Source: Pseudovibrio sp. Alg231-02 (lineage in GTDB: Bacteria; Pseudomonadota; Alphaproteobacteria; Rhizobiales; Stappiaceae). Taken from it: a DNA stretch of 64,000 nt. The position numbers were made by a program, and so were the translations under genes. The DNA is taken from contig NZ_FREX01000004.1 in the NCBI RefSeq assembly GCF_900143565.1, positions 62,001-126,000 on the forward strand, written 5' to 3'. The notes below the pieces were generated by a model, which had not been told where the DNA came from, made no database searches, and saw nothing but the letters and a program-made list of their open reading frames with translations. This document shows positions 44,371 to 59,344 of this stretch, piece after piece; position 1 is the stretch's first letter; every line of letters starts with the position of its first letter.

Positions 44371-44929
44371 TCTAAGCGGCTTTGCCATGGGTGAAGCCAT
44401 TTAGAGCCAAATAAAAACAATAAGAACGAACAATAACAATAATAGGCCCCACACGGGCACATGTTCATGTGGCGCTCGCACACTCAAAAAGCCCCGTCTC
44501 TTAATGAGGCGGGGTTTTTATTTTGTCTTTTTCATATGTAGCGCCAAAGATCCGGACCAGCTTCCCTTAGTTATTGTCAGCTATACCCCCTTGATTCAGG
44601 CGGATTAGAAAAGGCGGAAAGCCCCAGTCTGCAGATATTTTCTGCAGGATCACACTAGTGAAAACCAAGATATCTCTGGCTTCTCATTCCCGATTTTTAA
44701 TAACTTTGAATATTACGGGCTCAGTTTCACTAATATTCTTCACGAGTTCTAGAGAATATAAGTAAGCACATGATGAAGCCAACTGATCGCAGGCTTCTTT
44801 CACACAAACACAAATTGCATACAAACAACTGCTCGCCTGACGCGACAGAACAATTTCTGCATGCCAATTACACAGTTTCCGGCAGCAGTATTTAGCTCAG
44901 TTTCTATTGTTTAAAACAGGGTTTATACT
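44371..44929. other. 559-nt region between the kinase gene and adhesin cassette 1
   Basis: It contains the terminator at 44487-44524, then an AT-rich promoter zone for the adhesin gene. A composite motif, CTTCCCTTAG (44561-44570) and ATACCCCCTTG (44583-44593), resembles elements upstream of the second adhesin gene. No gene is seen. Confidence 0.55.
44487..44524 (+). terminator. Terminator of the fbaA-kinase operon
   Basis: Stem CCCCGTCTC (44492-44500) / GAGGCGGGG (44506-44514) with one G-U pair, loop TTAAT, followed by TTTTTATTTT. A classic Rho-independent shape. Confidence 0.9.
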
Positions 44930-46135
44930 ATGACTCATCTCAAATATTCATGTGCTCTGGTCGCCTTGCTGGCGAGTGCAGGCATGGCACACGCAGGCAC
45001 CATCACCATCTCCACAGATGGCAGCGATGTGGTGACTCATTACACAGGCTCCTCAGACAACGCTACAACAGCCTTTGATGAAAGCACTGCGGCAGGCCTC
45101 ACACAACACCAAAAAGTCGACCGCATTTTTGCAAGTGAGATCAATGGCAACGCCGCAGATATTGCTAGTAACAGCCAAACTATTTCCGACTTTGAGACCC
45201 TGTTTGGAACAGTGCAGACAACAGCACCAGCGGCAATCTCTGATGGTGTTAAAGATCCGCTGAAGAACAACACAGGCACGCCTCTGGAGGAAGTCCGCGA
45301 TATTGAAGCTGCGCTCAAAGATGGCACAACAGCCAAAACCGAGTGGAAAGCTTACCTGGACCACGTAGAGGCAAAAGCTGCTGCTGGCGAAGAGATTACT
45401 ATGGATGCTCCGACAGATCCAGTGGCGGGCGACTTCACGAGCGGCGCTCTGCCTGCGAACATGGCGGCAGATCTGGGTACGCTTGATACTGCGGTAGACA
45501 ACTACGCGGCGGAGCAGTTGCCACACGAGAACTACAGCACTTTCACCACGGCCAATGGCGCCAATGCATCTGGCCGTGCAACAGCTCAGGCACTGGAAAG
45601 CGGCGAAGGTCTGGCGAATGGCATTCTGGCATCCTTCAACGCGGTAGATGCTAAGATTGGCGACATCAGCACACTGCCAAGCGATCTGCAGGCACCAACT
45701 CCAGCAGACACCACCGTTGTTTCGGCTGTGACCAAGCTCAACGAGAAGGTCGGCTCTCTGGCTGATCTGAACTCCACCTTTACCGGCACTGCCCGCAACA
45801 GTGTTGTGGCAGCAGTCAACAGCAATGCTGAGCGCATTACCGCCAACAGCGCAGCCATTTCCGACAACAGCTCCCGCATCGTTTCATTGGAAGAGGACGT
45901 TGATGAGCTGCAGTCCGGTGTTGCCATGGCAATCGCGATTGCCAACGCGCCGATCATTCAGGGCGGTTACAACGGCCTCTCCCTCTCTGGTGGTTTCGGG
46001 CACTTCAAAGGCAAGTCTGCTGGTTCTATGAAAGCCGCCTTCATGCCAATGGACAACATGGCGATCACCGCCTCCGTCGCGACCGACTTTGACGACAACG
46101 TCGCCGCTGGCGCGGGTCTCGGTTTCTCATTCTAA
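44930..46135 (+). CDS. YadA-anchored adhesin-like protein, cassette copy 1
   Basis: A 401-residue exported protein. Signal peptide residues 1-22 (ends AHA); a long passenger rich in Ala, Thr, Asp and Asn; then a short coiled-coil stalk (AERITANSAAISDNSSRIVSLEEDVDELQSG) and a C-terminal YadA-like anchor of about 70 residues (VAMAIAIANAPIIQGG ... GAGLGFSF) ending in Phe. This is the layout of a trimeric autotransporter adhesin, small by family standards. It is followed 18 nt later by an IalB-like secreted protein; the same pair recurs at 57849-59344. No head domain of known binding function was recognised. Confidence 0.85.
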   Translation: MTHLKYSCALVALLASAGMAHAGTITISTDGSDVVTHYTGSSDNATTAFDESTAAGLTQHQKVDRIFASEINGNAADIASNSQTISDFETLFGTVQTTAPAAISDGVKDPLKNNTGTPLEEVRDIEAALKDGTTAKTEWKAYLDHVEAKAAAGEEITMDAPTDPVAGDFTSGALPANMAADLGTLDTAVDNYAAEQLPHENYSTFTTANGANASGRATAQALESGEGLANGILASFNAVDAKIGDISTLPSDLQAPTPADTTVVSAVTKLNEKVGSLADLNSTFTGTARNSVVAAVNSNAERITANSAAISDNSSRIVSLEEDVDELQSGVAMAIAIANAPIIQGGYNGLSLSGGFGHFKGKSAGSMKAAFMPMDNMAITASVATDFDDNVAAGAGLGFSF

Positions 46136-46153
46136 GTTTTCAAGGAGAGGCAC

Positions 46154-46651
46154 ATGAGCCGACTTCTTTCATTTTTCTTCGTAGCCTTCGCCATGGTTTT
46201 CCATGGCGGGGGTGTTCTCGCACCTACTTCTGCTCAGGCAAAAGAGGAATGGTCCGTTCAATGCAGCCGGCAACAATGCCAGATGTACGCCGAGATCCGG
46301 CTACAAAACGGCACCTTGTTTAACAACATCGCATTTCGCAAACTCAATGCCACCACATACGCGGGCATCCTTAATCTGCCCCTCGGTATTCACATCCCAA
46401 GCGGCATCAACATCGGCATTGATGAAGCGGCAATCATTCAGGCCAAGTTGATCACCTGCAATCCTGATGGGTGCGAAGCTGCCTTTACAGCAAATCAAAC
46501 GGTGGTGGATTTTCTGAAGCGGGGAGACAAAATGTCGATCCTCGTCCGCAAAGCAGGCGATAGAAAACAGCTGGCCCTCAACTATTCTCTGATTGGCTTC
46601 ACCCGCAACTGGAACGCCTTCCATAAGCGTATGGAAATGCTGACACCGTAG
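46154..46651 (+). CDS. IalB-family-like secreted protein, cassette copy 1
   Basis: A 165-residue protein with a signal peptide to about residue 32 and a mature beta-rich domain matching the invasion-associated locus B family (EEWSVQC, CQMYAEIRL, LPLGIHIPSGINIGID, CNPDGCEAAF, LNYSLIGFTRNWNAF). Four conserved cysteines suggest two disulfides in the periplasm. Ribosome site AAGGAGAGG. It follows the adhesin gene by 18 nt and shares its transcript. Over half of the residues agree with the copy-2 protein at 58832. A role as assembly or secretion partner of the adhesin is inference. Confidence 0.85.
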   Translation: MSRLLSFFFVAFAMVFHGGGVLAPTSAQAKEEWSVQCSRQQCQMYAEIRLQNGTLFNNIAFRKLNATTYAGILNLPLGIHIPSGINIGIDEAAIIQAKLITCNPDGCEAAFTANQTVVDFLKRGDKMSILVRKAGDRKQLALNYSLIGFTRNWNAFHKRMEMLTP

Positions 46652-46719
46652 CCAGAAGGCCAAATAGATTTCTTGGGAGGAGTAAGTTACTGATATGCCT
46701 TGCACCTGTAGGGAGGAAC

Positions 46720-47175
46720 ATGGCCGCTGTGACGTACTCATCCAATACCGACAACTCCATATCCATTCGTGATGAGACCGAATTTCAGCGGTTTATTGGG
46801 TATGAGCTGGAGCTTTTCCCTAAGGATGGCACGGCGACATGTGCGTTGGATATTGATGCCAGGTTTGCCAATCGCAGCGGGGTTGTGCATGGGGCGATTG
46901 TGACCATGTTGCTGGACAATGCCTGCGGTGGATCTTGCAGCGCAACGGTGGATCCCACCGGGAAGCAACCGTTTGTGACGCTGTCACTGACAGTCAACTT
47001 CATCGCACCTGCCATCTGCAAGCGGTTGGTTGCGAAGGGCAAAGTTGTTGGGGGCGGCAAATCAACACTCTTTGCAGAGGCACAGTTGTTTGACGAAAAC
47101 GATCAACTAATCGCAACGGCCACCGGCCCTTTCAAACGCGCACCACAACGCGAGATGCGGCTTGATCACTCCTGA
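46720..47175 (+). CDS. PaaI-type thioesterase (hot-dog fold)
   Basis: A 151-residue single hot-dog protein: NRSGVVHGAIVTMLLDNACGGSC carries the conserved HGG-type loop (here HGAIV) and the Asp used by PaaI-like enzymes, and TLSLTVNFIAPA follows. It probably cleaves aryl- or acyl-CoA esters in the cytoplasm. The ribosome site GGGAGGA precedes ATG 46720. It ends 10 nt inside the convergent TetR gene. Confidence 0.87.
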   Translation: MAAVTYSSNTDNSISIRDETEFQRFIGYELELFPKDGTATCALDIDARFANRSGVVHGAIVTMLLDNACGGSCSATVDPTGKQPFVTLSLTVNFIAPAICKRLVAKGKVVGGGKSTLFAEAQLFDENDQLIATATGPFKRAPQREMRLDHS

Positions 47176-47750
47176 GTCTCGCGAGGCTTTGGTCCGACAC
47201 CGTCAAAAAAGGTCGTCATGAGCAATGCCGTGACGTCGCGGATATCCGCCTCTTCTTTCACAATCATATCCCAGGCAGAAAAAAGCAGTGCGTCGTAGGT
47301 GTTCATCACCCACCGCGTCGGCAGTTCCTTGCGAATGTCACCATCTTCTTTCGCCTGCTCAACCGTAATGATTGTCTCTTTTTCCATAAAGGCATAGCGT
47401 GGATCTTTGCTCAAAACGCGTTCCCCATCCAGCCAGAAGGATGAGAGGAAACGCAGCCGGTCAGCGAGCGGGAGCATCAGCTCAACAGCCCGCATCATCG
47501 CTTGCTTCCCGCGAAGGTTTTCTTTCTCCATAGGCGTCAGCGCTTGAATAATATCCTCAAAGCTGACCTTCAGGACCTCCTCAATCAACGCTTCGCGAGA
47601 CGCGAAGTGTCGATACAGCGTGGCGCGCCCAATCCCGGCGATCTCAGCGATCTCCGTTAGTGAAGCCATTGGATTTACTGGCAATTCTGCCAAGCCAGCT
47701 TCAATCAGGGCCCTGCGGGACTTAACAGCCCTTTTATCACGCAATAACAT
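47166..47750 (-). CDS. TetR-family regulator of the RND operon
   Basis: A 194-residue TetR protein with a clear HTH (SLTEIAEIAGIGRATLYRHFASREALIEEVL, residues about 30-60). It is divergent from the efflux operon, and the intergenic region holds two related palindromes around 47766-47816. The gene overlaps the thioesterase gene by 10 bases at its 3' end. It is likely the local repressor of the pump; the inducing ligand is unknown. Confidence 0.92.
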   Translation of the reverse strand: MLLRDKRAVKSRRALIEAGLAELPVNPMASLTEIAEIAGIGRATLYRHFASREALIEEVLKVSFEDIIQALTPMEKENLRGKQAMMRAVELMLPLADRLRFLSSFWLDGERVLSKDPRYAFMEKETIITVEQAKEDGDIRKELPTRWVMNTYDALLFSAWDMIVKEEADIRDVTALLMTTFFDGVGPKPRETQE

Positions 47751-47765
47751 TTCACCCTCATTTTA

Positions 47766-47816
47766 TGAGACGCACTTGTCTCACATATGATTATTATGAT
47801 ACACAATCGTCTCATA
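47766..47816. promoter_or_regulatory. Two palindromic TetR operators
   Basis: Site 1: TGAGAC-N6-GTCTCA (47766-47783), perfect. Site 2: TATGATAC-N6-GTCTCATA (47795-47816), one mismatched pair. Both have the same half-site TGAGAC and 6-nt centre; centres are about 31 nt apart, so dimers may sit on nearly the same face. Confidence 0.75.
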
Positions 47817-47930
47817 AATCAAGATCTGAGATGATCTAGAGGCGTTCACTCAGCGATAATCGGGCATTCCGTAGGCCTAAACCAAACTCTGAAACCTGCC
47901 TCAATAAAACATATTGCTCAGGAGCACTGA

Positions 47931-49061
47931 ATGTCCAAACGGATTGTGTGGTTATCAGCAGCATTGGTGCTACTGGGAACTGTCGGTACCTATGTTCTTT
48001 CGCTTGAAGACACAAGTGATGTCGACATCGGAGAAAAGGACGTTGTTCTGCCTGTGGTCAGCTATGTGACCTCGCAAGCAGCCGATAACGCCGGACATAT
48101 TTCTGTTTTTGCCGAAGTGCGCCCACGTTGGACTGCGGATCTAAAAGCGCAGGTCTCTGGCAAACTACTATCCGTGGCTCCTCAGGCCCTTGAAGGTAAG
48201 AAAGTCTCCAAGAATGAGGTGATGGCGCAGCTGGAAAAGCACACTTACGAAGCCCAGCTGGAAGATGCCAAATACCAGCAGTCGACTGCAGAATTCAATC
48301 TGAAGAAAAAGCAGAACAAGCATGTGCTTGCGCTGAAAAACTGGCGTGCAGTGAACCCGAAGGAAGCCCCACCGGAAATGGCCGTCCATATTCCGGAGCT
48401 GCGCGTTGCAGAAAAAGCGCTGGAAGCTGCTGTCCAGAAGGTAAAAGTCGCGCAGTATGATGTGAACGCGACCACCATCAAGGCCCCCTTCAGCGGGTTT
48501 GTGACAAAACGCCATGTGAGCATCGGCCAAAGCATCTCTGTAGGCGATACCTTGTTCACCCTGTTGGACGCTGAGCAGTTGGACATCACCGTCTCTCTGG
48601 ACCAAGCCCAATGGAACCTGCTGGAAAAGGCGTGGCAGGAATTTCCGGCGAAGATCTATAATGCTGACAAGGAGCTGGTCGGGCTTGCCAGAATCCAGCG
48701 CGGTGGCGGCTTCCTTGACCCTAAATCGCGACGTTATCAGCTCTTCCTCGAGATCGTAAAATCACCGGAAACCACTGTTTTACCGGGCGAGTTCGTGAAA
48801 GTTGAACTGCAGAGTAGAACTGTCAACGACAGCCTGAAATTGCCTGCGACTGTGCTCACTCAAGAAGGGTTCATCTGGTTCTTAAACAACAAGGACGAGC
48901 TGCAGCGCTTTGAAGCTTCTGTCGTGTTCCGCAATGACACAGACATCATCATGAAGATGCCGAATGAGCTGCAAGAGATGGATGAGAAGCGCGTTGTTCA
49001 GCTGCCGATGGCCGCGTTCTTACCGGGTCAGCACGTCGCCCCAACTCCAGCGGGGCACTAA
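47931..49061 (+). CDS. RND efflux periplasmic adaptor (MFP)
   Basis: A 376-residue membrane-fusion protein. N-terminal membrane anchor (residues 4-24), lipoyl-like halves with DLKAQVSGKLL and IKAPFSGFVTKRHVSIGQSISVGDTLF, a central helical hairpin, and a beta-barrel domain. It links the inner-membrane RND pump to an outer-membrane channel. It lies 3 nt before the pump gene. No TolC-like channel gene is adjacent. Controlled by the divergent TetR gene. Confidence 0.92.
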   Translation: MSKRIVWLSAALVLLGTVGTYVLSLEDTSDVDIGEKDVVLPVVSYVTSQAADNAGHISVFAEVRPRWTADLKAQVSGKLLSVAPQALEGKKVSKNEVMAQLEKHTYEAQLEDAKYQQSTAEFNLKKKQNKHVLALKNWRAVNPKEAPPEMAVHIPELRVAEKALEAAVQKVKVAQYDVNATTIKAPFSGFVTKRHVSIGQSISVGDTLFTLLDAEQLDITVSLDQAQWNLLEKAWQEFPAKIYNADKELVGLARIQRGGGFLDPKSRRYQLFLEIVKSPETTVLPGEFVKVELQSRTVNDSLKLPATVLTQEGFIWFLNNKDELQRFEASVVFRNDTDIIMKMPNELQEMDEKRVVQLPMAAFLPGQHVAPTPAGH

Positions 49062-49064
49062 CAC

Positions 49065-52000
49065 ATGGCGTGGCTCACAAACTGGTTTATTCGAAACCCG
49101 GTCGCAGCAAACCTCATCATGGCGTTCATCCTGATTGTTGGGGTGTCCTCTCTCATGAACATCCGCATTGAGGGCTTTCCCAAGCTGCCTGCGGATACCG
49201 TGACAATCACGACCGAACTGCCCAACGGCTACACGGAGCAGGTTGATAAGCAAATCACCCGCAAGGTGGAAAAGGCGCTGGAAGGTCTGAGCGGTGTCAA
49301 AAACATCAGCTCAATTTCACAACCGGGTTCGTCTGTTGTCTCCGTTCAAAAGACAAGCGACACCAAACTCTCCACCTTGCTCGATGACATCCGCTTGAAG
49401 ATCGATGGCATTTACAATCTGCCGAAGAAAGCGGAACGACCTGTCATTGAAAAACAGAGCATGGATATGCCTGCCATGTTTGTGCAGGTCTACGGAGATG
49501 CGGATTTCAAAACCCTACAGCGTATCGCTCGTCAACTGCGCAACAAGCTGCTGGCCAGCCCGGAGGTTTCTCGCCTCAAACAATGGGGTTTGCAGACCGA
49601 ACAGATCAAGATCGGTTTAGAACCATATACGCTGGAACGTCTGAACCTGACCCCTGAGCAGGTCATGAACCGTATCCGCGAGTCTTCTCTTTACTATCAG
49701 GGCGGAACGCTGAAGACCGAAGGCGGCTATATCTCTTTGCGCGCAGATACTCAGGCCTATTATAAAGCCGACTTTGAGCGCATTCCGATCATTGAGTGGG
49801 ACGACGGCACCACAACCACTCTTGGCGATATTGCCAAGGTGGAAGACGCCTTTGCTGACATTGATATGGAAGCACGCTTCAACGGCAAAGAGTCCGTTGG
49901 ACTGGAAGTGCTGATTGGCCGCAAAGACAACCTTATTCATGTCTCAGAGGATGTGCAGGCCATCATAGCTGACTTCCGCACAACTCTGCCGACTGGTGTA
50001 CAGGTGGGGATTTGGGGCAACTCCAGTGATTACATCGAGGATCGCCTGAGCCTGCTCAGCTCCAACGCGTTTCAGGGTCTGGCTCTGGTGGTGTTGATCC
50101 TGTCGCTGTTCCTCAACATCAAGCTGGCCTTCTGGGTCGCCATGGGCATTCCAATTTCATTGGCCGGTGCGTTTGCTGTGGCGACGACTGGCTGGGTCGA
50201 TTATTCACTCAACGACATCACCACGTTCGGTCTCATCATCGCACTCGGTATTCTCGTTGATGATGCCGTGGTGGTCGGTGAAAGCGTCTTTGAGCAGCGC
50301 AAACGCTATGCAGACCCGCGCAAATGTACGGCGGCAGGCGTGCATAAAGTGGCCGTTGCCACGATATTTGGCGTGCTGACAACCACGGCAGCATTCTTCC
50401 CTATGCTTCTGATGAACAGTGAGCTGGGTAAGATCCTCGGCAGCTTCTCAGGCATTGTTATTCTGGCGCTGCTGTTCTCTCTGTTCGAGAGCAAGTTCAT
50501 TCTGCCCGCTCACCTCGCTTACATCTCGTTGGAAGAGAAGAAGCAGAACATCTTCTCACGGAGCTGGGGCAAGGTGCAGGGTGTGGCGCGCGGTGGCTTG
50601 TTCTGGTTCCGCGACACCATCTATTTCCCGGTGCTTAGATGGGCCATCCGACAGCGCTATGCGGTTCTGGTTGGCTTCATTTCTGTGGCAGTGCTCGTGT
50701 TTGGCCTGATGTGGAAGGGTAAAATCCACTCTGTCTTCTTTCCGGAGATTCCCGGTCAGTACATCGTGGTGAACATGGAGATGGATCCACGCGCACCGTT
50801 CGATCTGACACAGAACAACATCTCCACGATTGAAAACATCGCAAATGCTGTTGACCGGCAATATGCCGAGCAGCAGCCGGACGTGGGCGGTGTGTTCCAA
50901 AACATCTTCCGCATCGTATCCGACAGCACAAATGCCACCATTTATGCTGAGCTGCGCCCGTTGGACGAGCGCGGGGATGCAAAGACAAGTGACATTTTGC
51001 GCGACTGGCAGAACCGCACCGGTACTTTGGAAGGTGTTTCCAAACTCACCTTCTCGGGCTTTGAAGAGATCGGTGGTGGGTTCAAGATCCGTTTGTTCGG
51101 TGAAAACTCTGAGCAGTTGCAGCTGGCAAGTGAAGAGCTCATGGCAGAGCTTGGCAAACGAGCGGGCGTCAGCAACCTGCGCGACACGTTCAAAGCCGGC
51201 CAGCCAGAACTTCGCCTGACCCTAAAACCGGAAGCACGTCATCTCGGTTTCACACCAGAGCGACTGGCAAGTCAGGTGGCGCACCAGTTTGGTGGCGGGG
51301 AGGCACAGCGCATCCAACGTGGAGATTCAGAGGTTCGCGTGATTGTTCGCAATACACTGGATGCTCGTGATGCCATTGAGGACCTGTTGCAGTCCCGTCT
51401 GCGCGGGGCCAACGACAACTGGGTCACGCTGCAATCAGTTGCCAACATCGAAGCGCGTTATGTGCCCGGATACGTGCACCGCAGAAACGGCGATCAGGTC
51501 GCCACAATCGAAGCTGACATCAATAAACAGATCGTTGCTCCTGCTGAGCTGGGTCAGGATATCTTCACCTCCGTTGTGCCCCAACTACAACAGAAGTATC
51601 CCGGTGTTAAAATCAAGCAGGGTGGCGAGCTGGAGGAAATGGGTGAAGTTAAGGGCAATATGAACCGCGCCCTTCTCATCACCTGTTTCCTCATCTTTGT
51701 TCTATTGGCGATCCCGCTGAAGTCCTACTTCAAGCCGCTGATCATCATGTCCGTGGTTCCGTTTGGAGTGGTCGGGGCAATCCTAGGCCATGCCATCATG
51801 GGCATCCCGTTCAGCATGATGTCGATCTTCGGCTTGTTGGCTTTGATCGGCGTGATCGTCAATGACTCTCTCGTCATGGTCACGCACTACCTTCACCTGC
51901 GTGAGGACGATGTAGAGCATATTGACGCAACGGAGCGCAGCGGCGTGGATCGCTTCCAGGCGATCTTCCTGACAACGGCAACAACGGTCGCCGGCTTGAT

Positions 52001-52295
52001 GCCGCTCATGAGCGAAACTTCCGAGCAGGCCATGTACCTGATACCAGCAGCCGTCTCTCTGGCATACGGGGAGATTTTCGGGACACTTATTACTTTAATC
52101 CTGATTCCAGTACTGGTCGCAATTGCGGAAGATATTCGCGTCTTTCTCTTCGGTAAACGCGATAAGGCATTGGAATATGCGCAAATGGAGCGAAAAGAGG
52201 CCCTGGAAGCAGAGGAAAAACACGCGATTTCAGAAAAATCCCCAGAGAATGACAAAGATACAAAACCTGAGGGTTTTCCTCTAGAAAAGGCCTAA
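49065..52295 (+). CDS. RND-family efflux pump (AcrB-like)
   Basis: A 1076-residue inner-membrane pump with the double six-helix RND plan. The N-terminal helix FIRNPVAANLIMAFILIVG, loop PNGYTEQVDKQIT, TM4 motif GLIIALGILVDDAVVVGESV with the paired Asp residues used for proton relay, and a second-half TM section near residue 860-1010 (PLKSYFKPLIIMSVVPFGVVG, ALIGVIVNDSLVMV) are seen. The C-terminal tail is long and charged. Drives drug or metabolite export together with the adaptor. Ends before a strong terminator at 52311-52338. The substrate range is unknown. Confidence 0.95.
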   Translation: MAWLTNWFIRNPVAANLIMAFILIVGVSSLMNIRIEGFPKLPADTVTITTELPNGYTEQVDKQITRKVEKALEGLSGVKNISSISQPGSSVVSVQKTSDTKLSTLLDDIRLKIDGIYNLPKKAERPVIEKQSMDMPAMFVQVYGDADFKTLQRIARQLRNKLLASPEVSRLKQWGLQTEQIKIGLEPYTLERLNLTPEQVMNRIRESSLYYQGGTLKTEGGYISLRADTQAYYKADFERIPIIEWDDGTTTTLGDIAKVEDAFADIDMEARFNGKESVGLEVLIGRKDNLIHVSEDVQAIIADFRTTLPTGVQVGIWGNSSDYIEDRLSLLSSNAFQGLALVVLILSLFLNIKLAFWVAMGIPISLAGAFAVATTGWVDYSLNDITTFGLIIALGILVDDAVVVGESVFEQRKRYADPRKCTAAGVHKVAVATIFGVLTTTAAFFPMLLMNSELGKILGSFSGIVILALLFSLFESKFILPAHLAYISLEEKKQNIFSRSWGKVQGVARGGLFWFRDTIYFPVLRWAIRQRYAVLVGFISVAVLVFGLMWKGKIHSVFFPEIPGQYIVVNMEMDPRAPFDLTQNNISTIENIANAVDRQYAEQQPDVGGVFQNIFRIVSDSTNATIYAELRPLDERGDAKTSDILRDWQNRTGTLEGVSKLTFSGFEEIGGGFKIRLFGENSEQLQLASEELMAELGKRAGVSNLRDTFKAGQPELRLTLKPEARHLGFTPERLASQVAHQFGGGEAQRIQRGDSEVRVIVRNTLDARDAIEDLLQSRLRGANDNWVTLQSVANIEARYVPGYVHRRNGDQVATIEADINKQIVAPAELGQDIFTSVVPQLQQKYPGVKIKQGGELEEMGEVKGNMNRALLITCFLIFVLLAIPLKSYFKPLIIMSVVPFGVVGAILGHAIMGIPFSMMSIFGLLALIGVIVNDSLVMVTHYLHLREDDVEHIDATERSGVDRFQAIFLTTATTVAGLMPLMSETSEQAMYLIPAAVSLAYGEIFGTLITLILIPVLVAIAEDIRVFLFGKRDKALEYAQMERKEALEAEEKHAISEKSPENDKDTKPEGFPLEKA

Positions 52296-52310
52296 ACGGA
52301 CCTTACGACA

Positions 52311-52338
52311 CGGTCTCCCCTTGCGGAGGCCGTTTTTT
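52311..52338 (+). terminator. Terminator of the RND efflux operon
   Basis: CGGTCTCC (52311-52318) / GGAGGCCG (52325-52332), with one G-U pair and TTTTTT (52333-52338). Confidence 0.85.
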
Positions 52339-52536
52339 GTTGAGGACTGCCCTAACGAAATCTGCTAGTTAACCCACTGTGAATCCGCAGAATTCCAGCA
52401 CTAAATATATATAAGAAATCACTTAAGTATTGAATTTCGTAATATTTGAATATTCTAATATAGATTATATATTAGAAATACAGCATGCACTTATATATTG
52501 CGGAATATCAAAGAGAAAAAATCTACTAATCCGGAA

Positions 52537-52550
52537 TTGATTGCACTCAA
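52537..52550 (+). promoter_or_regulatory. FNR/FnrL-type box of the nap operon
   Basis: TTGAT-TGCA-CTCAA at 52537-52550 differs from the FNR consensus TTGAT-N4-ATCAA at one base. Its centre lies about 125 nt before napE; a -10-like TACTCT (52568-52573) at the class II spacing fits activation under low oxygen. Confidence 0.7.
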
Positions 52551-52667
52551 TTTGTGCTTTTTACATTTACTCTAGGTTCCTGCGCGTACGAGCGGGCACG
52601 TATAACGTTACGGTGTCTGCTCCAATCAAATAGCTGCAAGAGGCGGCTGTTAGTACGGAGTACGCAC

Positions 52668-52847
52668 ATGGCTGGCTTAAGCCAAAATACCCAGACCACC
52701 ACTCCAGCAGTGAGCAAAGGCCGCGAGAGAGTAGCATTCCTGTTTCTGGCAGTTGTTCTTGCGCCAGTTCTGATGACTGCAGCTGTTGGCGGATACGGCT
52801 TCCTTATCTGGATGTCGCAGATCCTGTTTGGCCCACCGTCCTTCTAA
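52668..52847 (+). CDS. napE: Periplasmic nitrate reductase subunit NapE
   Basis: A 59-residue single-pass membrane protein of the NapE type: a hydrophilic start with RERVAFLFLAVVLAPVLMTAAVGGYGF, one helix and the ending ILFGPPSF. Its function is unclear in the family. ATG 52668 begins the family start; a longer frame upstream lacks support. It lies 9 nt before napF and opens the operon. Confidence 0.88.
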   Translation: MAGLSQNTQTTTPAVSKGRERVAFLFLAVVLAPVLMTAAVGGYGFLIWMSQILFGPPSF

Positions 52848-52856
52848 GAGGTAGTC

Positions 52857-53366
52857 GTGGCCAACTTATCCCGCAGAGCATTCTTTACCCGCTTAAGCGC
52901 TACCCCAGAGGTGGTGTCTCCGGTTCGTCCGCCTTGGACAACGGAACAGCGGATTGAAGACAAATGCACCGGCTGTTTTGAATGCGTCAAAGCCTGCCCG
53001 GAAGCCATTTTGTTCAGCGCGGATAATCGGCCTTACCTCAAAACCGGCGTTGGAGAATGCACGTTCTGCGAAGAGTGCGCAAAAGCGTGCCCAGAGGAAG
53101 ATCTGTTTGATCTGACTGCGGCACCCTGGAGGCTCACAGCAGAAATTCAGCAAGAGGCATGTCTGCTTGGAAAGGGCGTTTCCTGCCAGACCTGCACCGA
53201 CAGCTGTGACCCAAGAGCCCTCCGGTTCGATATGCGTGTCGCACCTACAGGAAAGATTCAACTGGATGCAGACCAATGCAATGGCTGCGGAGCTTGTCTC
53301 ATTTCCTGCCCCGTAGATGCGATCGCCATGAACGACCAGAGCCGAGAAAGTTTAGCAAATGCGTAA
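52857..53366 (+). CDS. napF: Ferredoxin-type protein NapF
   Basis: A 169-residue cytoplasmic iron-sulfur protein with four Cys motifs: CTGCFECVKACPEA, CTFCEECAKACPEE, CQTCTDSCDP and CNGCGACLISCP, each set for a [4Fe-4S] cluster. The RRAFFTR opening is common in NapF. It helps NapA maturation, with electrons or cluster assembly. GTG start at 52857 after AAGAGGTAG. Overlaps napD by 8 nt. Confidence 0.93.
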   Translation: MANLSRRAFFTRLSATPEVVSPVRPPWTTEQRIEDKCTGCFECVKACPEAILFSADNRPYLKTGVGECTFCEECAKACPEEDLFDLTAAPWRLTAEIQQEACLLGKGVSCQTCTDSCDPRALRFDMRVAPTGKIQLDADQCNGCGACLISCPVDAIAMNDQSRESLANA

Positions 53367-53697
53367 TGCAACAACCGTAGAGCGCGAAGAAGAAGCCGGT
53401 GTCTGGCACATTTCAAGTGTGCTGCTCCAGGCCGATCCTGCCAAGCGAGAGCAGATATGCGCTGCGATTGAACAGATACCTTCTGCTGAAATTACAGAAG
53501 TATCTGACTCTACAAAGATAATTGTGACGCTGGAAACACCGAGCGAACGCGACCTCGCGAACGCTTTGAGTGACATGCAGCAGTTAGATGGCGTGGTTAC
53601 CGCTTCGCTCATCTTCCACCAAACCGACACCACCGACCTCAATTCAATTGTGATTTCTGATCAGGGTGACATGCAACCCGAGGGGACTTGCTCATGA
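53359..53697 (+). CDS. napD: NapD chaperone
   Basis: A 112-residue cytoplasmic protein of the NapD family: [30 protein letters not shown] near the start and SLIFHQTD near the end. NapD binds the twin-arginine signal of NapA and guides cofactor insertion before Tat export. It overlaps napF by 8 nt and napA by 4 nt (ATGA), so all three are coupled. The N-terminal residues differ somewhat from better-known NapD proteins. Confidence 0.92.
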
Positions 53698-56192
53698 TTA
53701 AACTAACAAGACGCGCTGTCATTAAGGCGCAGGCTGTTGCAGCGGCAACTGCCGCAGCCGGGGCAAGCCTTCCGGCGCAAGCAGCAAACATTGTAACGGA
53801 TGCAAGCAAAACAGACCTGAAATGGTCCAAAGCTGCTTGCCGCTTCTGCGGTACCGGTTGTTCCATCATGGTTGCGACCAAGAATGACCGCGTTGTTGCA
53901 ACACATGGTGATGCTCAGAGCCCGGTTAACAAAGGCCTGAACTGTGTGAAAGGTTACTTCCTTTCCAAGATCATGTACGGCAAGGACCGTCTTGAGCAGC
54001 CACTGCTGCGTAAAACCGACGGCAAGTACGACAAAGAAGGCGAATTCGAGCCAGTATCCTGGGACGAAGCTTTCGACATCATGGCTGTGAAAGCAAAAGA
54101 AGCCATGAAGAAGAACGGCCCTTACGCGGTTGGCATGTTCGGCTCAGGCCAGTGGACTGTTTGGGAAGGCTACGCGGCTGCCAAGCTCTGGAAAGCTGGC
54201 TTCCGCTCCAACACCATTGACCCGAACGCACGTCACTGCATGGCTTCTGCTGTGGGCGCATTCATGCGTACCTTCGGCATCGATGAGCCAATGGGTTGTT
54301 ATGACGATTTTGAGAACGCAGACGCATTCGTGCTCTGGGGTTCCAACATGGCTGAGATGCACCCGGTTCTGTGGACCCGTCTTGCTGATCGCCGCCTGTC
54401 TAACCCAGATGTAAAAGTTGCTGTTCTTTCTACATACCAGCACCGCAGCTTTGACCTTGCTGACATCCCAATGGTCTTCACTCCACAGACCGATCTCGTG
54501 ATTGCGAACTTCATCGCAAATTACATCATCGAGAACGAAGCCGTGGACATGGACTTCGTTAGCAAGCACACCAACTTCCGTCTTGGCAATCAGGACATCG
54601 GTTATGGCCTGCGCCCTGAGCACCCACTGCAGCAAGCTGCTAAAAACGCTGACAAAGCTGGTGGTTCTAAAGAGATCAGCTTCGAAGAGTACGCAGAGTT
54701 CGTTAAGCCGTACACTCTCGAATACGCTGAGAAGATGTCTGGTGTTCCTGCAAACCGTCTGCTGGAACTGGCAAAGCTTTACGCTGATCCAGACAAAAAG
54801 GTTATGTCCCTGTGGACCATGGGTGCGAACCAGCATACCCGCGGCGTTTGGGTCAACCAGATGTTCTACAACATCCACCTTCTCACCGGCAAAATCTCCA
54901 AGCCAGGCTGTGGTCCGTTCTCACTGACCGGTCAGCCATCCGCTTGTGGTACGGCTCGTGAAGTTGGTACCTTCGCACACCGTCTGCCAGCAGACATGGT
55001 TGTGAAGAACCCAGATCACCGTAAATACGCTGAGAAAATCTGGAAACTGCCAGACGGCACCATCCCGGCAAAGCCTGGTTACCATGCTGTTCTGCAGTCC
55101 CGCATGCTCAAAGACGGCAAGCTGAACTTCTACTGGACCCAGGTCACCAACAACATGCAGGCTGGTCCTAACGTTGTTGAAGAGATCTACCCAGGCTGGA
55201 GAAATCCAGAGAACTTCATCGTTGTTTCCGATCCGTACCCAACAGTATCCGCAATGGCTGCTGACCTTATTCTGCCAACCGCAATGTGGGTAGAAAAAGA
55301 AGGTGCATACGGTAACGCTGAACGTCGTACTCAGTTCTGGCATCAGCTGGTTTCTGCTCCAGGCGACGCAAAGTCTGACCTTTGGCAGACCGTTGAGTTC
55401 TCCAAGCGCTTCAAAGTTGAAGAAGTATGGCCTGAAGAACTGATCGCAAAGCAGCCAGAAGTACGCGGTAAAACTCTGTTTGACATCCTGTTCGCAAACG
55501 GCAACGTCGACAAGTTCCCGCTTTCTGAAACCAGCGATGAGTACAAGAACGACGAGTCCAACGACTTCGGCTTCTACATTCAAAAAGGTCTGTTCGAAGA
55601 ATACGCTGCCTTTGGCCGTGACCATGGTCACGATCTGGCACCGTTCGAGCGTTACCACGAAGAACGTGGCCTGCGTTGGCCTGTTGTGAATGGCAAAGAA
55701 ACCCAGTGGCGCTTCCGCGAAGGGGCTGACCCATACGTTGGCGAAGGCAAGGGCTACGAGTTCTACGGCCATAAAGACGGCAAGGCACGCATCTTCGCGC
55801 TTCCTTACGAGCCGCCAGCAGAAAGCCCGGATGAAGAATACGATTTCTGGCTCTGCACAGGCCGTGTGATTGAACACTGGCACACTGGTTCCATGACCCA
55901 GCGCGTTCCTGAGCTGTACAAAGCTGTTCCAGATGCTCTGTGCTACATGCATCCGGATGATGCAAAAGCGAAGGGTCTGCGTCGTGGTTCTGAAGTGCGC
56001 GTTGTTTCCCGTCGCGGTGAAATCACAACACGCATCGAGACCCGTGGCCGTAACAAGCCGCCAAAAGGCCTCGTGTTCGTACCGTTCTTTGATGCAAGCC
56101 AGCTCATCAACAAGGTGACACTGGATGCAACAGATCCTCTTTCAAAACAGACCGACTATAAGAAGTGCGCGGTCAAGATCGTAGCCGTGTGA
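53694..56192 (+). CDS. napA: Periplasmic nitrate reductase catalytic subunit NapA
   Basis: An 832-residue molybdoenzyme. A Tat signal TRRAVIKA starts at residue 5, though it lacks the usual FLK after the arginines. The [4Fe-4S] cysteines are 49, 52, 56 and 84 (CRFCGTGC and NCVKG). The Mo-binding Cys is near residue 182 in ARHCMASAV. The length and C-terminal molybdopterin domain are normal. It reduces nitrate to nitrite in the periplasm. ATG 53694 overlaps the napD stop; TTG at 53688 is less likely. The gene uses many preferred codons, as in a highly expressed enzyme. Confidence 0.97.
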
Positions 56193-56200
56193 GGTACGCC

Positions 56201-56662
56201 ATGAAACTTCTGAAACTCCTTGTAGCCAGCTTTATCGCTGTGTCTGTCTTTGGTGGAGCAAGCTCATTTGCTGCTGACACCATCTCCGAAATGCGCAACG
56301 CGGACATCCTGACTCAGGATGCCGCACCGCGGATCCCGAAAGTGGTGAACTCTGACGAACGTCAGGTGCGTAACTACCCTGAGCAGCCACCATTGATCCC
56401 TCACAAGATCGACGGCTACCAGATCGACAAGCGCCTGAACAAATGCATGACTTGTCACAGCCGTACGGCAATTGAGAAGTCTCAGGCACCAATGATCTCC
56501 ATCACGCACTTTATGAACCGTGATAATCAGTTCCTGGCGTCTGTTTCCCCTCGCCGTTTCTTCTGCACCCAGTGTCATGTGCCTCAGACTGAAGCCAAGC
56601 CACTGGTTGAGAACACCTTCGTTGACGTTGATGACGTGCTCGAAGGTAAGGCCGGCAAGTAG
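56201..56662 (+). CDS. napB: Diheme cytochrome c subunit NapB
   Basis: A 153-residue periplasmic protein with a signal peptide (1-22). Two heme-binding motifs are seen: CMTCH (residue about 83) and CTQCH (about 122), plus distal His residues in HKID and HFMNRD. It passes electrons from NapC to NapA. ATG 56201 follows a GAGG site 8 nt after napA. Length is typical. Confidence 0.95.
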
Positions 56663-56673
56663 GAGCACACCGT

Positions 56674-57264
56674 ATGTTTTCAGCTATCAAACGGTTCTGG
56701 CAGGTTATCCGCAAACCTAGTGTCCATTACAGCCTCGGCTTTTTGACACTTGGCGGGTTCGTCGCTGGCATCATCTTCTGGGGTGGGTTCAACACCGCCC
56801 TGGAAGTCACCAACACAGAAGAATTCTGTATTGGGTGTCACGAGATGGAAAACACTGTCTATCAGGAACTCAAGACCACCATTCACTATACCAACCGGTC
56901 TGGTGTGCGTGCGACTTGTCCTGATTGTCACGTACCTCACAACTGGACCTCCAAGGTTGCCCGTAAGATTCAGGCATCCAAGGAAGTTTACGGCAAAATC
57001 TTCGGCACAATCAGCACACCGGAGAAATTCGAGGACAAGCGTCTTGAGCTGGCAAGCCACGAATGGGCTCGCTTTAAAGCCAACGACTCTCTTGAATGCC
57101 GTAACTGTCACAGTGAAGAGTCCATGGACTTTACACGCCAGAGCCTGAGAGCTTCTGAGCAGCACGAAAAATTCCTCGTGACTGGTGAGAAGACCTGTAT
57201 CGACTGCCACAAAGGCATCGCACACAAGCTACCTGATCTGAGCCTGCTGAAAGAGGGTCATTAA
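56674..57264 (+). CDS. napC: Tetraheme quinol dehydrogenase NapC
   Basis: A 196-residue NapC/NirT cytochrome with one N-terminal membrane helix (about 20-40) and four CxxCH motifs: CIGCH, CPDCH, CRNCH and CIDCH. It takes electrons from quinol and passes them to NapB. It ends the operon. With no napGH present, NapC is the only visible quinol route. A strong terminator follows at 57393. Confidence 0.96.
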
Positions 57265-57848
57265 GAGTGAAGCTTGCTTGATTGGTTACGGTCAAATCTC
57301 GCAAACTCACTCAAGCAAAGACTTTAGAACTCAATGCGTGTTTGCAAGTGTACGCGGCGAGTTCTAAGACCCATCACATGCTCAGACAAAAGAACCCCGC
57401 GGTTTGAAACCACGGGGTTTTTTCTTGTCCACATTTATTCCATAATTTTATCAATTAAAATTATATGAAATATACTCATGAGGAAAATTTCTGAAAAATG
57501 CCTCAGAGTCACCTCAATTCCCGCAATTTTGCGAGAGTTTACAAATATTAACCATTGCAAGTCTCACCTGAAATTTTTTGCATATTTTCACCCTAGGGGT
57601 ATCCCTAATTTCCTTAGGGAAGGTCTCCAGCCTCGCGCCAGTGCTTTTTGACACTCCAGCAAAAATCGTGGGCCATATGCTCTCTGAAAATCGAGAGTAT
57701 TAGAACACACCTCATCTGCAACCCATTGTTTTTGCGGAACTAATAAACTCGTCCTCAGTTCAGGTGTATGTTTTACGCAGTGCAGCTGAAAAAATTTAGA
57801 CAGGGTGGAACCCGACTTGGGCACACTCCTCTGAAAGGACATAAAAAG
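57265..57848. other. 584-nt region between napC and adhesin cassette 2
   Basis: It contains the nap terminator, then an AT-rich promoter zone. CCCTAGGGGTAT (57591-57602) and CTTAGGGAAG (57613-57622) form, with an inverted repeat TCCCTAA/TTAGGGA (57602-57620), a composite site resembling that before cassette 1 in the opposite orientation. A minus-strand frame at 57588-58004 is only a shadow. Confidence 0.55.
57393..57423 (+). terminator. Terminator of the nap operon
   Basis: AACCCCG (57393-57399) / CGGGGTT (57413-57419), with inner GGTT/AACC and one mismatch, followed by TTTTTT. Begins about 130 nt after napC. Confidence 0.85.
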
Positions 57849-58817
57849 ATGAACGCATTGAAGCTTTCTGCTGCTGCCGTGGCCCTCATCGCAGGCATGA
57901 GCACCGCTCACGCTGCTAATATCTCCGTTTCTGACGGCACAGTGACCACCACTGGCGGCACCGTAAGCGGCGGTCTGGCTGATGGTTCCGCGACCACCGG
58001 ACAAGCAGGTACAGCAACTGGCATCACTGCAACCATAAGTGATATTAATGAGTCAGACCTAAGCAGCGCTCTTCAAGCCAAGATCAATGACTCCATCGAT
58101 GAGTCCGATCTCAGCTCTGCGTTGGCAACGAAGATCAACGGCAAAGCTGATCAGGGTGCACTTGAAGCTGAGCAGCTGCGGATTACCCAAAATGCTGATG
58201 ACATCAGCACAAACGTCGGTGATATCGCAGACAACAAGATTGCTATTAGCGCAAATACAGCTGCACACGAGCTCAATGCGCAGAATATTGCCACCAATGT
58301 AACCGACATCAAAGGCAACAAGGACGCAATTGCGGTCAATTTGGCCTCCATCGACCAGAACACAACCAATATTGCTTCCAACACGGGTCGTATTGGTGTG
58401 AATGAAGGAAATATCGCAACTAACACGACCAACATCTCTTCCAATACTGGCCGCATTGAAGTGAATGAAGGTAACATCGCTTCGAACACAAACCGCATCG
58501 GCGTAAACGAGCAGAACATCGCAACTAACGCTGCGAACATCTCCTCCAACACTGATCGCATCTCGTCGCTGGAAGGTGATGTTGACGAACTGCGCAGCGG
58601 TGTGGCGATGGCGGTGGCGATTGCCAATGCGCCGGTCCTTCAGGGTGGCAAAAACGGTATCTCCGTATCCGGTGGTTTTGGACACTTCAAAGGCAAAGCT
58701 GCATCTGCTCTGAAAGTGGCGTTCCTGCCAACCGAGAACATGGCTGTTACAGCTTCTGTAGCCACAGACTTCAGCAACAACGTCACTGCTGGTGCTGGCC
58801 TGGGCTTCTCCTTCTAA
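57849..58817 (+). CDS. YadA-anchored adhesin-like protein with long N@d coiled coil, cassette copy 2
   Basis: A 322-residue exported protein: signal peptide 1-22, a short Gly/Thr-rich head (23-100), then 18 consecutive heptads at about residues 111-236 with Asn at position 5 and mostly Ile at position 2 (NIATNTT, NISSNTG, RIEVNEG and so on), and a YadA-like anchor (251-322) ending GAGLGFSF. Ile at position a and Asn at d form a left-handed trimer core with anion-binding layers in known adhesins. The anchor is nearly the same as in copy 1, while the stalk is much longer. Followed 15 nt later by an IalB-like gene. ATG 57849 was chosen since the signal peptide starts there. Confidence 0.87.
   Translation: MNALKLSAAAVALIAGMSTAHAANISVSDGTVTTTGGTVSGGLADGSATTGQAGTATGITATISDINESDLSSALQAKINDSIDESDLSSALATKINGKADQGALEAEQLRITQNADDISTNVGDIADNKIAISANTAAHELNAQNIATNVTDIKGNKDAIAVNLASIDQNTTNIASNTGRIGVNEGNIATNTTNISSNTGRIEVNEGNIASNTNRIGVNEQNIATNAANISSNTDRISSLEGDVDELRSGVAMAVAIANAPVLQGGKNGISVSGGFGHFKGKAASALKVAFLPTENMAVTASVATDFSNNVTAGAGLGFSF
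58179..58556 (+). repeat. 18 tandem 21-bp heptad-coding units
   Basis: In-frame units of 21 bp encode the (N/R)I-x-x-N-x-x heptads of the stalk. Units are degenerate at third positions but some near-identical blocks recur (AACATCGCAACTAAC occurs twice, near 58410 and 58516), so unit number may change by slippage or recombination. Confidence 0.8.
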
Positions 58818-58831
58818 CAAGGAAGTAGATC

Positions 58832-59344
58832 ATGAAACCAATCTGGATCCTGCTGACAGCGGCAATGCTCTTTTTCTTTCAGGGTGTGAATGCGTACAGC
58901 ACCACTGAGCCTTCCAATGAAGAGGATTGGTCAGTCAAATGCAGCAGTGACCTGTGTCAGGTCTATGCTGAAATCCGGCTTGAGAACGGTGCGCTGGTAA
59001 ATTCCATCATGTTTCGCAAACTCGAAGCAGATGTGTATGCAGCTATTATCAAGCTGCCGCTCGGGATCCACATCCCCAGCGGTATCCAGATTGGCATTGA
59101 TGATGATGCCTTGTTCGACGCAAAGCTGATCACCTGTCAGCCAGACGGGTGCGAAGCGGCGTTTAACGCCAACAAGACCATCGTCAACTTCCTCAAACGC
59201 GGCAAGGCCATGTCCATTGTGGTCACCAAGACCAATGACCGCAAAAAGCTGGCGCTGAACTACTCTCTGATCGGCTTCACCCGCAACTGGGAAGAGTTCA
59301 CCAAACGCATGGCAGTCTTGCTGCCAGATGAGACAACCGGCTGA
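58832..59344 (+). CDS. IalB-family-like secreted protein, cassette copy 2
   Basis: A 170-residue secreted protein, signal peptide to about residue 22, with the same motifs as copy 1: DWSVKC, CQVYAEIRLENG, LPLGIHIPSGIQIGID, CQPDGCEAAF and LNYSLIGFTRNW. Four cysteines are conserved. It lies 15 nt behind the adhesin gene. Conservation between the two copies is about as strong as that of the adhesin anchors, while the adhesin heads and stalks differ. The IalB name rests on family resemblance, so its biochemical role is open. Confidence 0.85.
   Translation: MKPIWILLTAAMLFFFQGVNAYSTTEPSNEEDWSVKCSSDLCQVYAEIRLENGALVNSIMFRKLEADVYAAIIKLPLGIHIPSGIQIGIDDDALFDAKLITCQPDGCEAAFNANKTIVNFLKRGKAMSIVVTKTNDRKKLALNYSLIGFTRNWEEFTKRMAVLLPDETTG

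What the first reader, a model, noticed from the sequence alone, without database searches (positions are those of the whole stretch)
44930..59344. A duplicated two-gene cassette: trimeric-autotransporter-like adhesin plus IalB-like partner
The pair at 44930-46651 and the pair at 57849-59344 keep the same order, spacing (18 and 15 nt), anchors (nearly identical last ~70 residues) and IalB-like proteins, while heads and stalks differ strongly. Strict linkage of an IalB-like secreted protein with a YadA-type anchor suggests a functional pair, such as a periplasmic chaperone or secretion partner, as TpgA or SadB serve other trimeric adhesins. I know of no description of an IalB-type partner. The cassettes lie 12 kb apart with nap and RND genes between.
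Basis: partly seen in the sequence, partly recalled or inferred. Interest (0 to 1): 0.85.

Follow-up and report, generated by a model that had tools for sequence, protein, structure and literature searches.

The report
Sticky-fibre genes with IalB-type partners
Two genes for trimeric surface adhesins in this marine bacterium each sit directly before a gene for a small secreted IalB-type protein; the pairing held without exception in the genomes of its genus examined and hints at a dedicated helper for building or holding the surface fibre, but it was already noticed in two related genera and what the helper does is unknown.

Summary
The window (Pseudovibrio) holds two YadA-anchor genes (PF03895), each followed 18 or 14 nt later by an IalB-family gene (PF06776). 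In 16 genomes of the genus all 16 YadA-anchor genes, in 8 genomes, carry such a partner 11-19 nt downstream; this partner subfamily (276-312 bits, next best 62) is absent from the 8 anchor-less genomes. Partner divergence follows the anchor (r 0.96) better than the passenger (0.82). Outside the genus an IalB gene directly follows 12 of 61 anchors in the order sample, in 4 genera; the linked IalBs form two well-supported clades. Family-wide, IalB is no TAA marker (61 of 61 genomes have it). Best reading: a periplasmic, disulphide-bonded accessory that helps assemble or hold the adhesin's trimeric barrel, working like SadB or TpgA but a member of neither family. This is inference; no experiment or structure supports it. 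Unexpected: elsewhere in the order the same slot often holds an unrelated small protein ("family B", 17 of 61 anchors; no Pfam match in six members scanned).

The parts
44487..44519 (+). terminator-like hairpin before cassette 1 (14 pairs)
   Evidence: 1 found in the region; shuffles give mean 2.8, so not above chance as a count; long stem plus T run
44930..46135 (+). adhesin 1: 401 aa, signal-peptide-like N terminus (by eye), YadA anchor at residues 351-401, C-terminal F
46154..46651 (+). partner 1: 165 aa IalB-family protein, signal-peptide-like N terminus (by eye), cysteines 37, 42, 102, 107
57393..57419 (.). terminator-like hairpin between the nap-like genes and cassette 2
   Evidence: listed on the - strand; the + strand also has a T run after the stem
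57849..58817 (+). adhesin 2: 322 aa, stalk of I..N heptads (17 motifs in one register), YadA anchor at residues 271-322, C-terminal F
   Evidence: start chosen at MNALKL as in relatives, the longest ORF begins at 57768
58832..59344 (+). partner 2: 170 aa IalB-family protein, same four cysteines

Best explanation
Each pair is a small operon-like unit for one trimeric autotransporter adhesin (type Vc) and its own periplasmic accessory protein. Both are exported by Sec (inferred from N termini). The IalB-type partner, a soluble two-disulphide protein, binds the C-terminal translocator part of the adhesin on the periplasmic side, either while three chains assemble and insert through Bam or afterwards as a clamp under the finished barrel, and so raises the amount or stability of surface adhesin. 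Shown: gene pairing, one-to-one linkage in the genus sample, purifying selection on the partner, divergence tracking the anchor. Inferred: co-transcription, location, disulphides, contact with the anchor, and the effect on display.
For: 16 of 16 YadA-anchor genes in 16 genomes of the genus have the partner 11-19 nt downstream; 8 of 8 genomes with anchors have it, 0 of 8 without. In all seven genomes with two or more anchors each adhesin has its own partner rather than sharing one. Partner distance correlates with anchor distance r 0.96 (Mantel p 1e-4, not corrected for shared ancestry), with passenger r 0.82; partner dN 0.036-0.075 against dS 0.73-1.45 in the four of six comparisons where its dS was estimable, while passengers fall to 51-53% identity within a type. 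An IalB gene directly follows 12 of 61 non-Pseudovibrio anchors, in 4 further genera. Clade I subfamily: 7 of 7 strong hits in 259 genomes lie beside an anchor listed. Precedents: SadB raises SadA display (PMC3953254, passages); TpgA forms a complex with the AtaA transmembrane domain (PMC13082670, passages).
Against: No structure or interaction could be computed (prediction tool off). Linkage alone is equally expected of co-regulation. Anchor and partner distances both carry the species history, so r 0.96 does not prove contact. Bartonella IalB is described as having a role in erythrocyte invasion (quoted in passages), which would fit a surface role. 26 of 61 anchors in the order sample and 26 of 27 further anchors of the class sample have none of the partner families tested within about 1.3 kb downstream (two of the 27 had under 510 nt of sequence there), and 2 of 4 anchors in g99 lack the partner, so TAAs need no such partner in general. 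One clade II IalB follows a secreted-looking repeat protein in which no YadA anchor was found (L199).
Confidence: 0.5

Rival explanations
1. The partner is a co-expressed, co-regulated envelope or surface protein that acts in the same step of host or surface attachment but does not touch the adhesin.
For: Adjacency with presumably shared expression; Rahbar 2020 doubts an operon relation in Brucella and cites regulators of the gene pair (PMC7688925, passages); the ialB gene next to batA appears in a table of the section on MucR as a gene silencer (PMC10746212, passage).
Against: Each duplicate adhesin keeps its own partner and divergence follows the anchor more than the passenger; no exception in 16 cassettes of the genus.
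Confidence: 0.25
2. The partner is exported and sits on or is carried by the fibre as a second adhesive or invasion factor, as proposed for Bartonella IalB.
For: IalB family name and the erythrocyte-invasion role quoted in PMC7688925 and PMC8859334 (passages).
Against: The partner is conserved (mean 89-92% identity within type) while the passengers vary (64-74%), the reverse of what a surface-exposed co-adhesin would be expected to show. The linked IalBs fall apart from the other IalBs of the same genomes.
Confidence: 0.15
3. Historical accident: an old neighbour pair that was duplicated as a block and is kept by inertia.
For: The 16 cassettes descend from few ancestors; only 5 genera in the samples show direct linkage; a single origin of the linked IalBs is not rejected (AU p 0.336).
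Against: Two separately supported linked clades (100/100 and 100/99); the two window cassettes have different flanking genes (read) and the genus has lost both genes together in 8 genomes or never had them there.
Confidence: 0.1

Closest known systems
Bartonella badA plus downstream ialB homologue (PMC8859334, passages)
   Same: TAA gene directly followed by an IalB-family gene; the published ORF is 573 bp, the length (190 aa plus stop) of the linked gene in L054, from an unnamed 1.6 Mb genome that I take to be Bartonella by that match and by a further IalB about 11 kb on
   Different: Much longer adhesin (recalled); the linked gene of L054 is in IalB clade I, the Pseudovibrio partners in clade II
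Brucella batA (BAB1_0069) and ialB (BAB1_0070) (PMC7688925, passages)
   Same: TAA and IalB genes adjacent on one strand
   Different: 209 nt apart; the authors doubt an operon; not compared here at sequence level
SadA/SadB of enterobacteria (PMC3953254, passages)
   Same: Small periplasmic partner encoded beside one TAA and shown to raise its surface display
   Different: [quoted passage not shown] the IalB partners have no cysteine at the end of the leader and lie downstream
AtaA/TpgA of Acinetobacter Tol 5 (PMC13082670, PMC8151025, passages)
   Same: Periplasmic partner co-encoded with a TAA and in complex with its membrane domain
   Different: TpgA binds peptidoglycan through a domain of its own; no second domain is found in the IalB partners

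Membership tests
Trimeric autotransporter adhesin (type Vc) | C-terminal YadA-type anchor (PF03895) | tested here: met
   28.4 and 37.6 bits, cut-off 22.7
Trimeric autotransporter adhesin (type Vc) | coiled-coil stalk | tested here: inconclusive
   adhesin 2: 17 I..N motifs in one heptad register; adhesin 1: 4 such motifs and weak 7-residue periodicity (0.17); no YadA_stalk or YadA_head Pfam match in either
Trimeric autotransporter adhesin (type Vc) | trimer on the surface, adhesion | not testable with these tools
   needs bench work
IalB family | PF06776 above its cut-off | tested here: met
   64.1 and 65.6 bits, cut-off 22.1; the partner profile also matches solved IalB 3dtd, E 6.7e-7
IalB family | role in cell invasion | not testable with these tools
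   quoted for Bartonella in PMC7688925 and PMC8859334; not claimed here
SadB | lipoprotein signal, gene upstream of the TAA | tested here: not met
   cysteines only at 37, 42, 102, 107, none at the end of the leader; gene lies downstream
TpgA | peptidoglycan-binding domain | tested here: not met
   only PF06776 above cut-off in both partners
TAA-specific accessory (works like SadB or TpgA) | partner raises surface display or stability of the cognate TAA | not testable with these tools
   needs deletion and surface detection

The most novel reading that the evidence does not exclude
TAAs of the order share a conserved accessory slot just downstream of the adhesin that different lineages fill with unrelated small secreted proteins: IalB clade I, IalB clade II, and families B, C and D, which match no Pfam model in the members scanned. 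The IalB pairs would then be one case of a general, repeatedly reinvented need for a barrel-specific periplasmic helper, and family B a new, common TAA export or anchoring factor.
Probability: 0.4. Interest if true: 0.75.

Novelty: new variant of a known kind. Interest (0 to 1): 0.5.

Why it matters
How three chains of a TAA assemble and stay anchored is an open question. The passages I saw of a 2021 review (PMC8151025) name two dedicated partners, SadB and TpgA, and the words IalB, Bartonella and Brucella do not occur in it. Pseudovibrio is, to my knowledge, not a listed pathogen; seven of the 16 genomes carry the pair in two or three copies and eight have none, so it offers a clean system in which to ask whether an IalB-type protein is a TAA helper. 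A positive answer would also give a reason for the ialB-type genes next to badA and batA.

Tried and rejected
Promoter and terminator scans were not above shuffles by more than about one standard deviation.

Rejected or corrected: family-wide linkage of PF06776 with TAAs (61 of 61 genomes have IalB, 11 of 61 TAAs). 'Nearly identical' anchors (74%). A first clustering put overlapping-frame ORFs of L046 and L047 into the IalB group; these were left out of alignment A6. The tree used 50 of the 58 rows collected; I dropped eight unlinked rows (six near-copies, and L108 and L109, which had been cut at a shifted place). Of linked IalBs it holds 5 of the 16 Pseudovibrio ones, 2 of 2 of g40 and 9 of 10 of g68, g30 and g99 (L046 left out). 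In one search one place was counted twice (L069 and the first of L085 are the same), so its 62 rows are 61 places. L053 is not counted as a directly linked pair: an IalB-like stretch lies third in line, after family C, and is cut by the locus end (the Pfam scan of that long frame gave nothing at E 0.01). The binomial values assume independent, uniform placement, which does not hold for related genomes.

[quoted passage not shown] I saw only that sentence and the reference, and the preprint is not held. It may already report some of these families. The same paper says TAA-TpgA-like pairs occur across genera that include Altererythrobacter.
Full report
What is there. Two + strand cassettes were confirmed. 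Cassette 1: adhesin 44930-46135 (401 aa), 18 nt, partner 46154-46651 (165 aa). Cassette 2: adhesin 57849-58817 (322 aa), 14 nt, partner 58832-59344 (170 aa). The adhesins end in a YadA anchor (PF03895) and the partners are IalB family (PF06776), all above the Pfam cut-offs. They are the only two anchor genes found in the genome, which has six IalB places. Anchors are 74% identical over 70 residues and partners 63%; passengers are very different (26% on average between the two types). A terminator-like hairpin precedes each cassette (44487-44519; 57393-57419), though the number of such sites is not above shuffles.

The genus. Among 61 genomes (the own one and 60 relatives), 11 have an anchor; in the genus itself 8 of 16 genomes hold 16 anchor genes. 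All 16 are followed by a partner, 11 to 19 nt downstream when the homologous start codon is used. A profile of six partners (A1) finds exactly these 16 at 276-312 bits in the 16 genomes, and next a 62-bit match; the eight genomes without anchor have none at that level. One of the 16 pairs is a third copy in G004 whose adhesin frame is 863 residues long. Six genomes carry the two types A and B together, a seventh (G002) has type A and a more distant one.

Evolution of the pair. On the 16 cassettes, partner distances follow anchor distances (r 0.96, Spearman 0.89, Mantel p 1e-4) more closely than passenger distances (r 0.82, Spearman 0.55). Within type A (28 comparisons) mean identity is 74% for passengers, 95% for anchors and 89% for partners; within type B (15 comparisons) 64, 95 and 92%. 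In the four of six comparisons where partner dS was estimable, partner dN is 0.036-0.075 and dS 0.73-1.45. So partner and anchor are held while the exposed part changes, which points to a job at the anchor or in export rather than on the surface. Shared descent alone can produce part of this correlation.

Beyond the genus. In 397 genomes of the order, 52 have PF03895 at E 0.001, at 65 places, two of them under Pfam's cut-off. I examined the DNA downstream of all 61 places outside Pseudovibrio. An IalB gene is the next gene in 12: eight in genera g68 and g30 (8 of 8 anchors there), two in g99 (2 of 4 anchors), two in g40 (2 of 2). Ten of the 12 were confirmed with Pfam, two (L048, L049) by a profile that includes them. 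In a thirteenth (L053) an IalB-like stretch lies third in line. Of 27 further anchors in a class sample of 385 genomes, none has IalB. Under uniform gene placement 12 of 61 is far from chance, but the 12 come from four genera.

Two linked clades. A tree of 50 IalBs places the TAA-linked ones in two groups: clade I (g68, g30, g99; 9 rows, support 100/100) and clade II (Pseudovibrio and g40; 7 rows, 100/99), amid 34 unlinked rows, which include other IalBs of the same genomes. A single linked group is not rejected (AU p 0.336), and long branches make the deep order unsure. A clade I profile finds 7 strong hits (292-329 bits) in 259 genomes, all beside an anchor listed, and then drops to 64 bits. 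A clade II profile finds in 397 genomes six strong hits, all at anchors (221-267 bits), then G142 (139 bits) and G073 (107 bits), then a continuum from 71 bits down. In G073 a protein with YadA head repeats lies about 0.6 kb upstream of the IalB gene, and a family B gene follows. In G142 the gene before it is a 468-residue secreted-looking repeat protein with no Pfam match, so clade II is not absolutely tied to YadA anchors.

The same slot with other proteins. Seventeen of the 61 anchors, and one of the 27 in the class, are followed by a small protein with the motif ANxTGNYxVxR; six members scanned match no Pfam model (family B). A family B profile finds 86 places in 58 of 397 genomes. I fetched 20 regions around family B genes, 19 of them from genomes where PF03895 had found no anchor. 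A profile made from 89 anchors finds an anchor-like stretch upstream on the same strand in 14 of the 20; five have none and one (L191) has one only on the other strand. Two of the 14 upstream proteins were checked by Pfam and carry YadA head repeats (L184, L186). The other family B places without a listed anchor, several of them weak matches, were not examined, so how strictly family B is tied to TAAs is open. Four anchors are followed by another family (D), and family C follows the linked IalB in seven f24 loci and the adhesin directly in two others. This suggests a general accessory position; it is sequence evidence only.

What is already in print. [quoted passage not shown] The Pseudovibrio comparison of 2016 (PMC4811931, passages) selected type V systems by four Pfam families that do not include PF03895, and the words YadA and IalB do not occur in it. 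In a 2021 review (PMC8151025, passages) SadB and TpgA are named and IalB does not occur. A 2026 preprint on TAA auxiliary proteins could not be read.

Mechanism. The most likely role is a periplasmic helper acting on the translocator end of the adhesin. The partner has a leader without a cysteine at its end and four cysteines conserved in all seven clade II sequences aligned, as expected of a soluble protein with two disulphides. It shows no peptidoglycan-binding domain. It therefore works like SadB or TpgA, if the reading holds, but fails the membership tests of both. I put this at 0.5, against co-regulation without contact (0.25), a surface co-factor (0.15) and inertia (0.1).

Verdict. A real, well-conserved pair; a new variant of a known kind, since the general idea of a TAA partner and the TAA-IalB adjacency are known. 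What is added: one-to-one linkage in an environmental genus with paralogous cassettes, the second linked IalB clade, the anchor-tracking divergence, and unannotated families in the same slot.

Noticed in passing
L057:876-1490, L061:1671-2402, L081:1350-1949 and others (alignment A4): Family B: small secreted-looking protein with motif ANxTGNYxVxR directly after TAA genes; no Pfam match in six members scanned; 86 places in 58 of 397 genomes of the order.
   Followed up: partly
L175-L194: PF03895 at E 0.001 seems to miss TAAs of this order: in 14 of 20 regions around family B genes (19 of the 20 from genomes without a PF03895 match) an anchor-like stretch lies upstream on the same strand by a home-made anchor profile; two of the upstream proteins carry YadA head repeats.
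   Followed up: partly
L199:1-1968: A clade II IalB directly follows a 468-residue repeat protein (ITQRAS-like motifs) without YadA anchor or Pfam match.
   Followed up: no
G104:C23, G333:C40, G276:C73, G416:C51: A second IalB gene lies about 1.3-1.5 kb beyond the TAA-linked one, with family C between; seen in 4 of the 5 g68/g30 genomes searched.
   Followed up: no
L059, L084, L089, L098: Family D: another small secreted-looking protein after four TAA genes; the two members scanned (L059, L098) match no Pfam model.
   Followed up: no
L080, L085: Tandem very short YadA-anchor genes; the one scanned (L080:2261-2734) also carries a Porin_2 match near its N terminus (49 bits).
   Followed up: no
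G015:C41:83318-83728 and G003:C170:13827-14018: Two weaker Pseudovibrio matches to the partner profile away from TAA genes: an uninterrupted 61.7-bit IalB and a 37.7-bit short piece.
   Followed up: no
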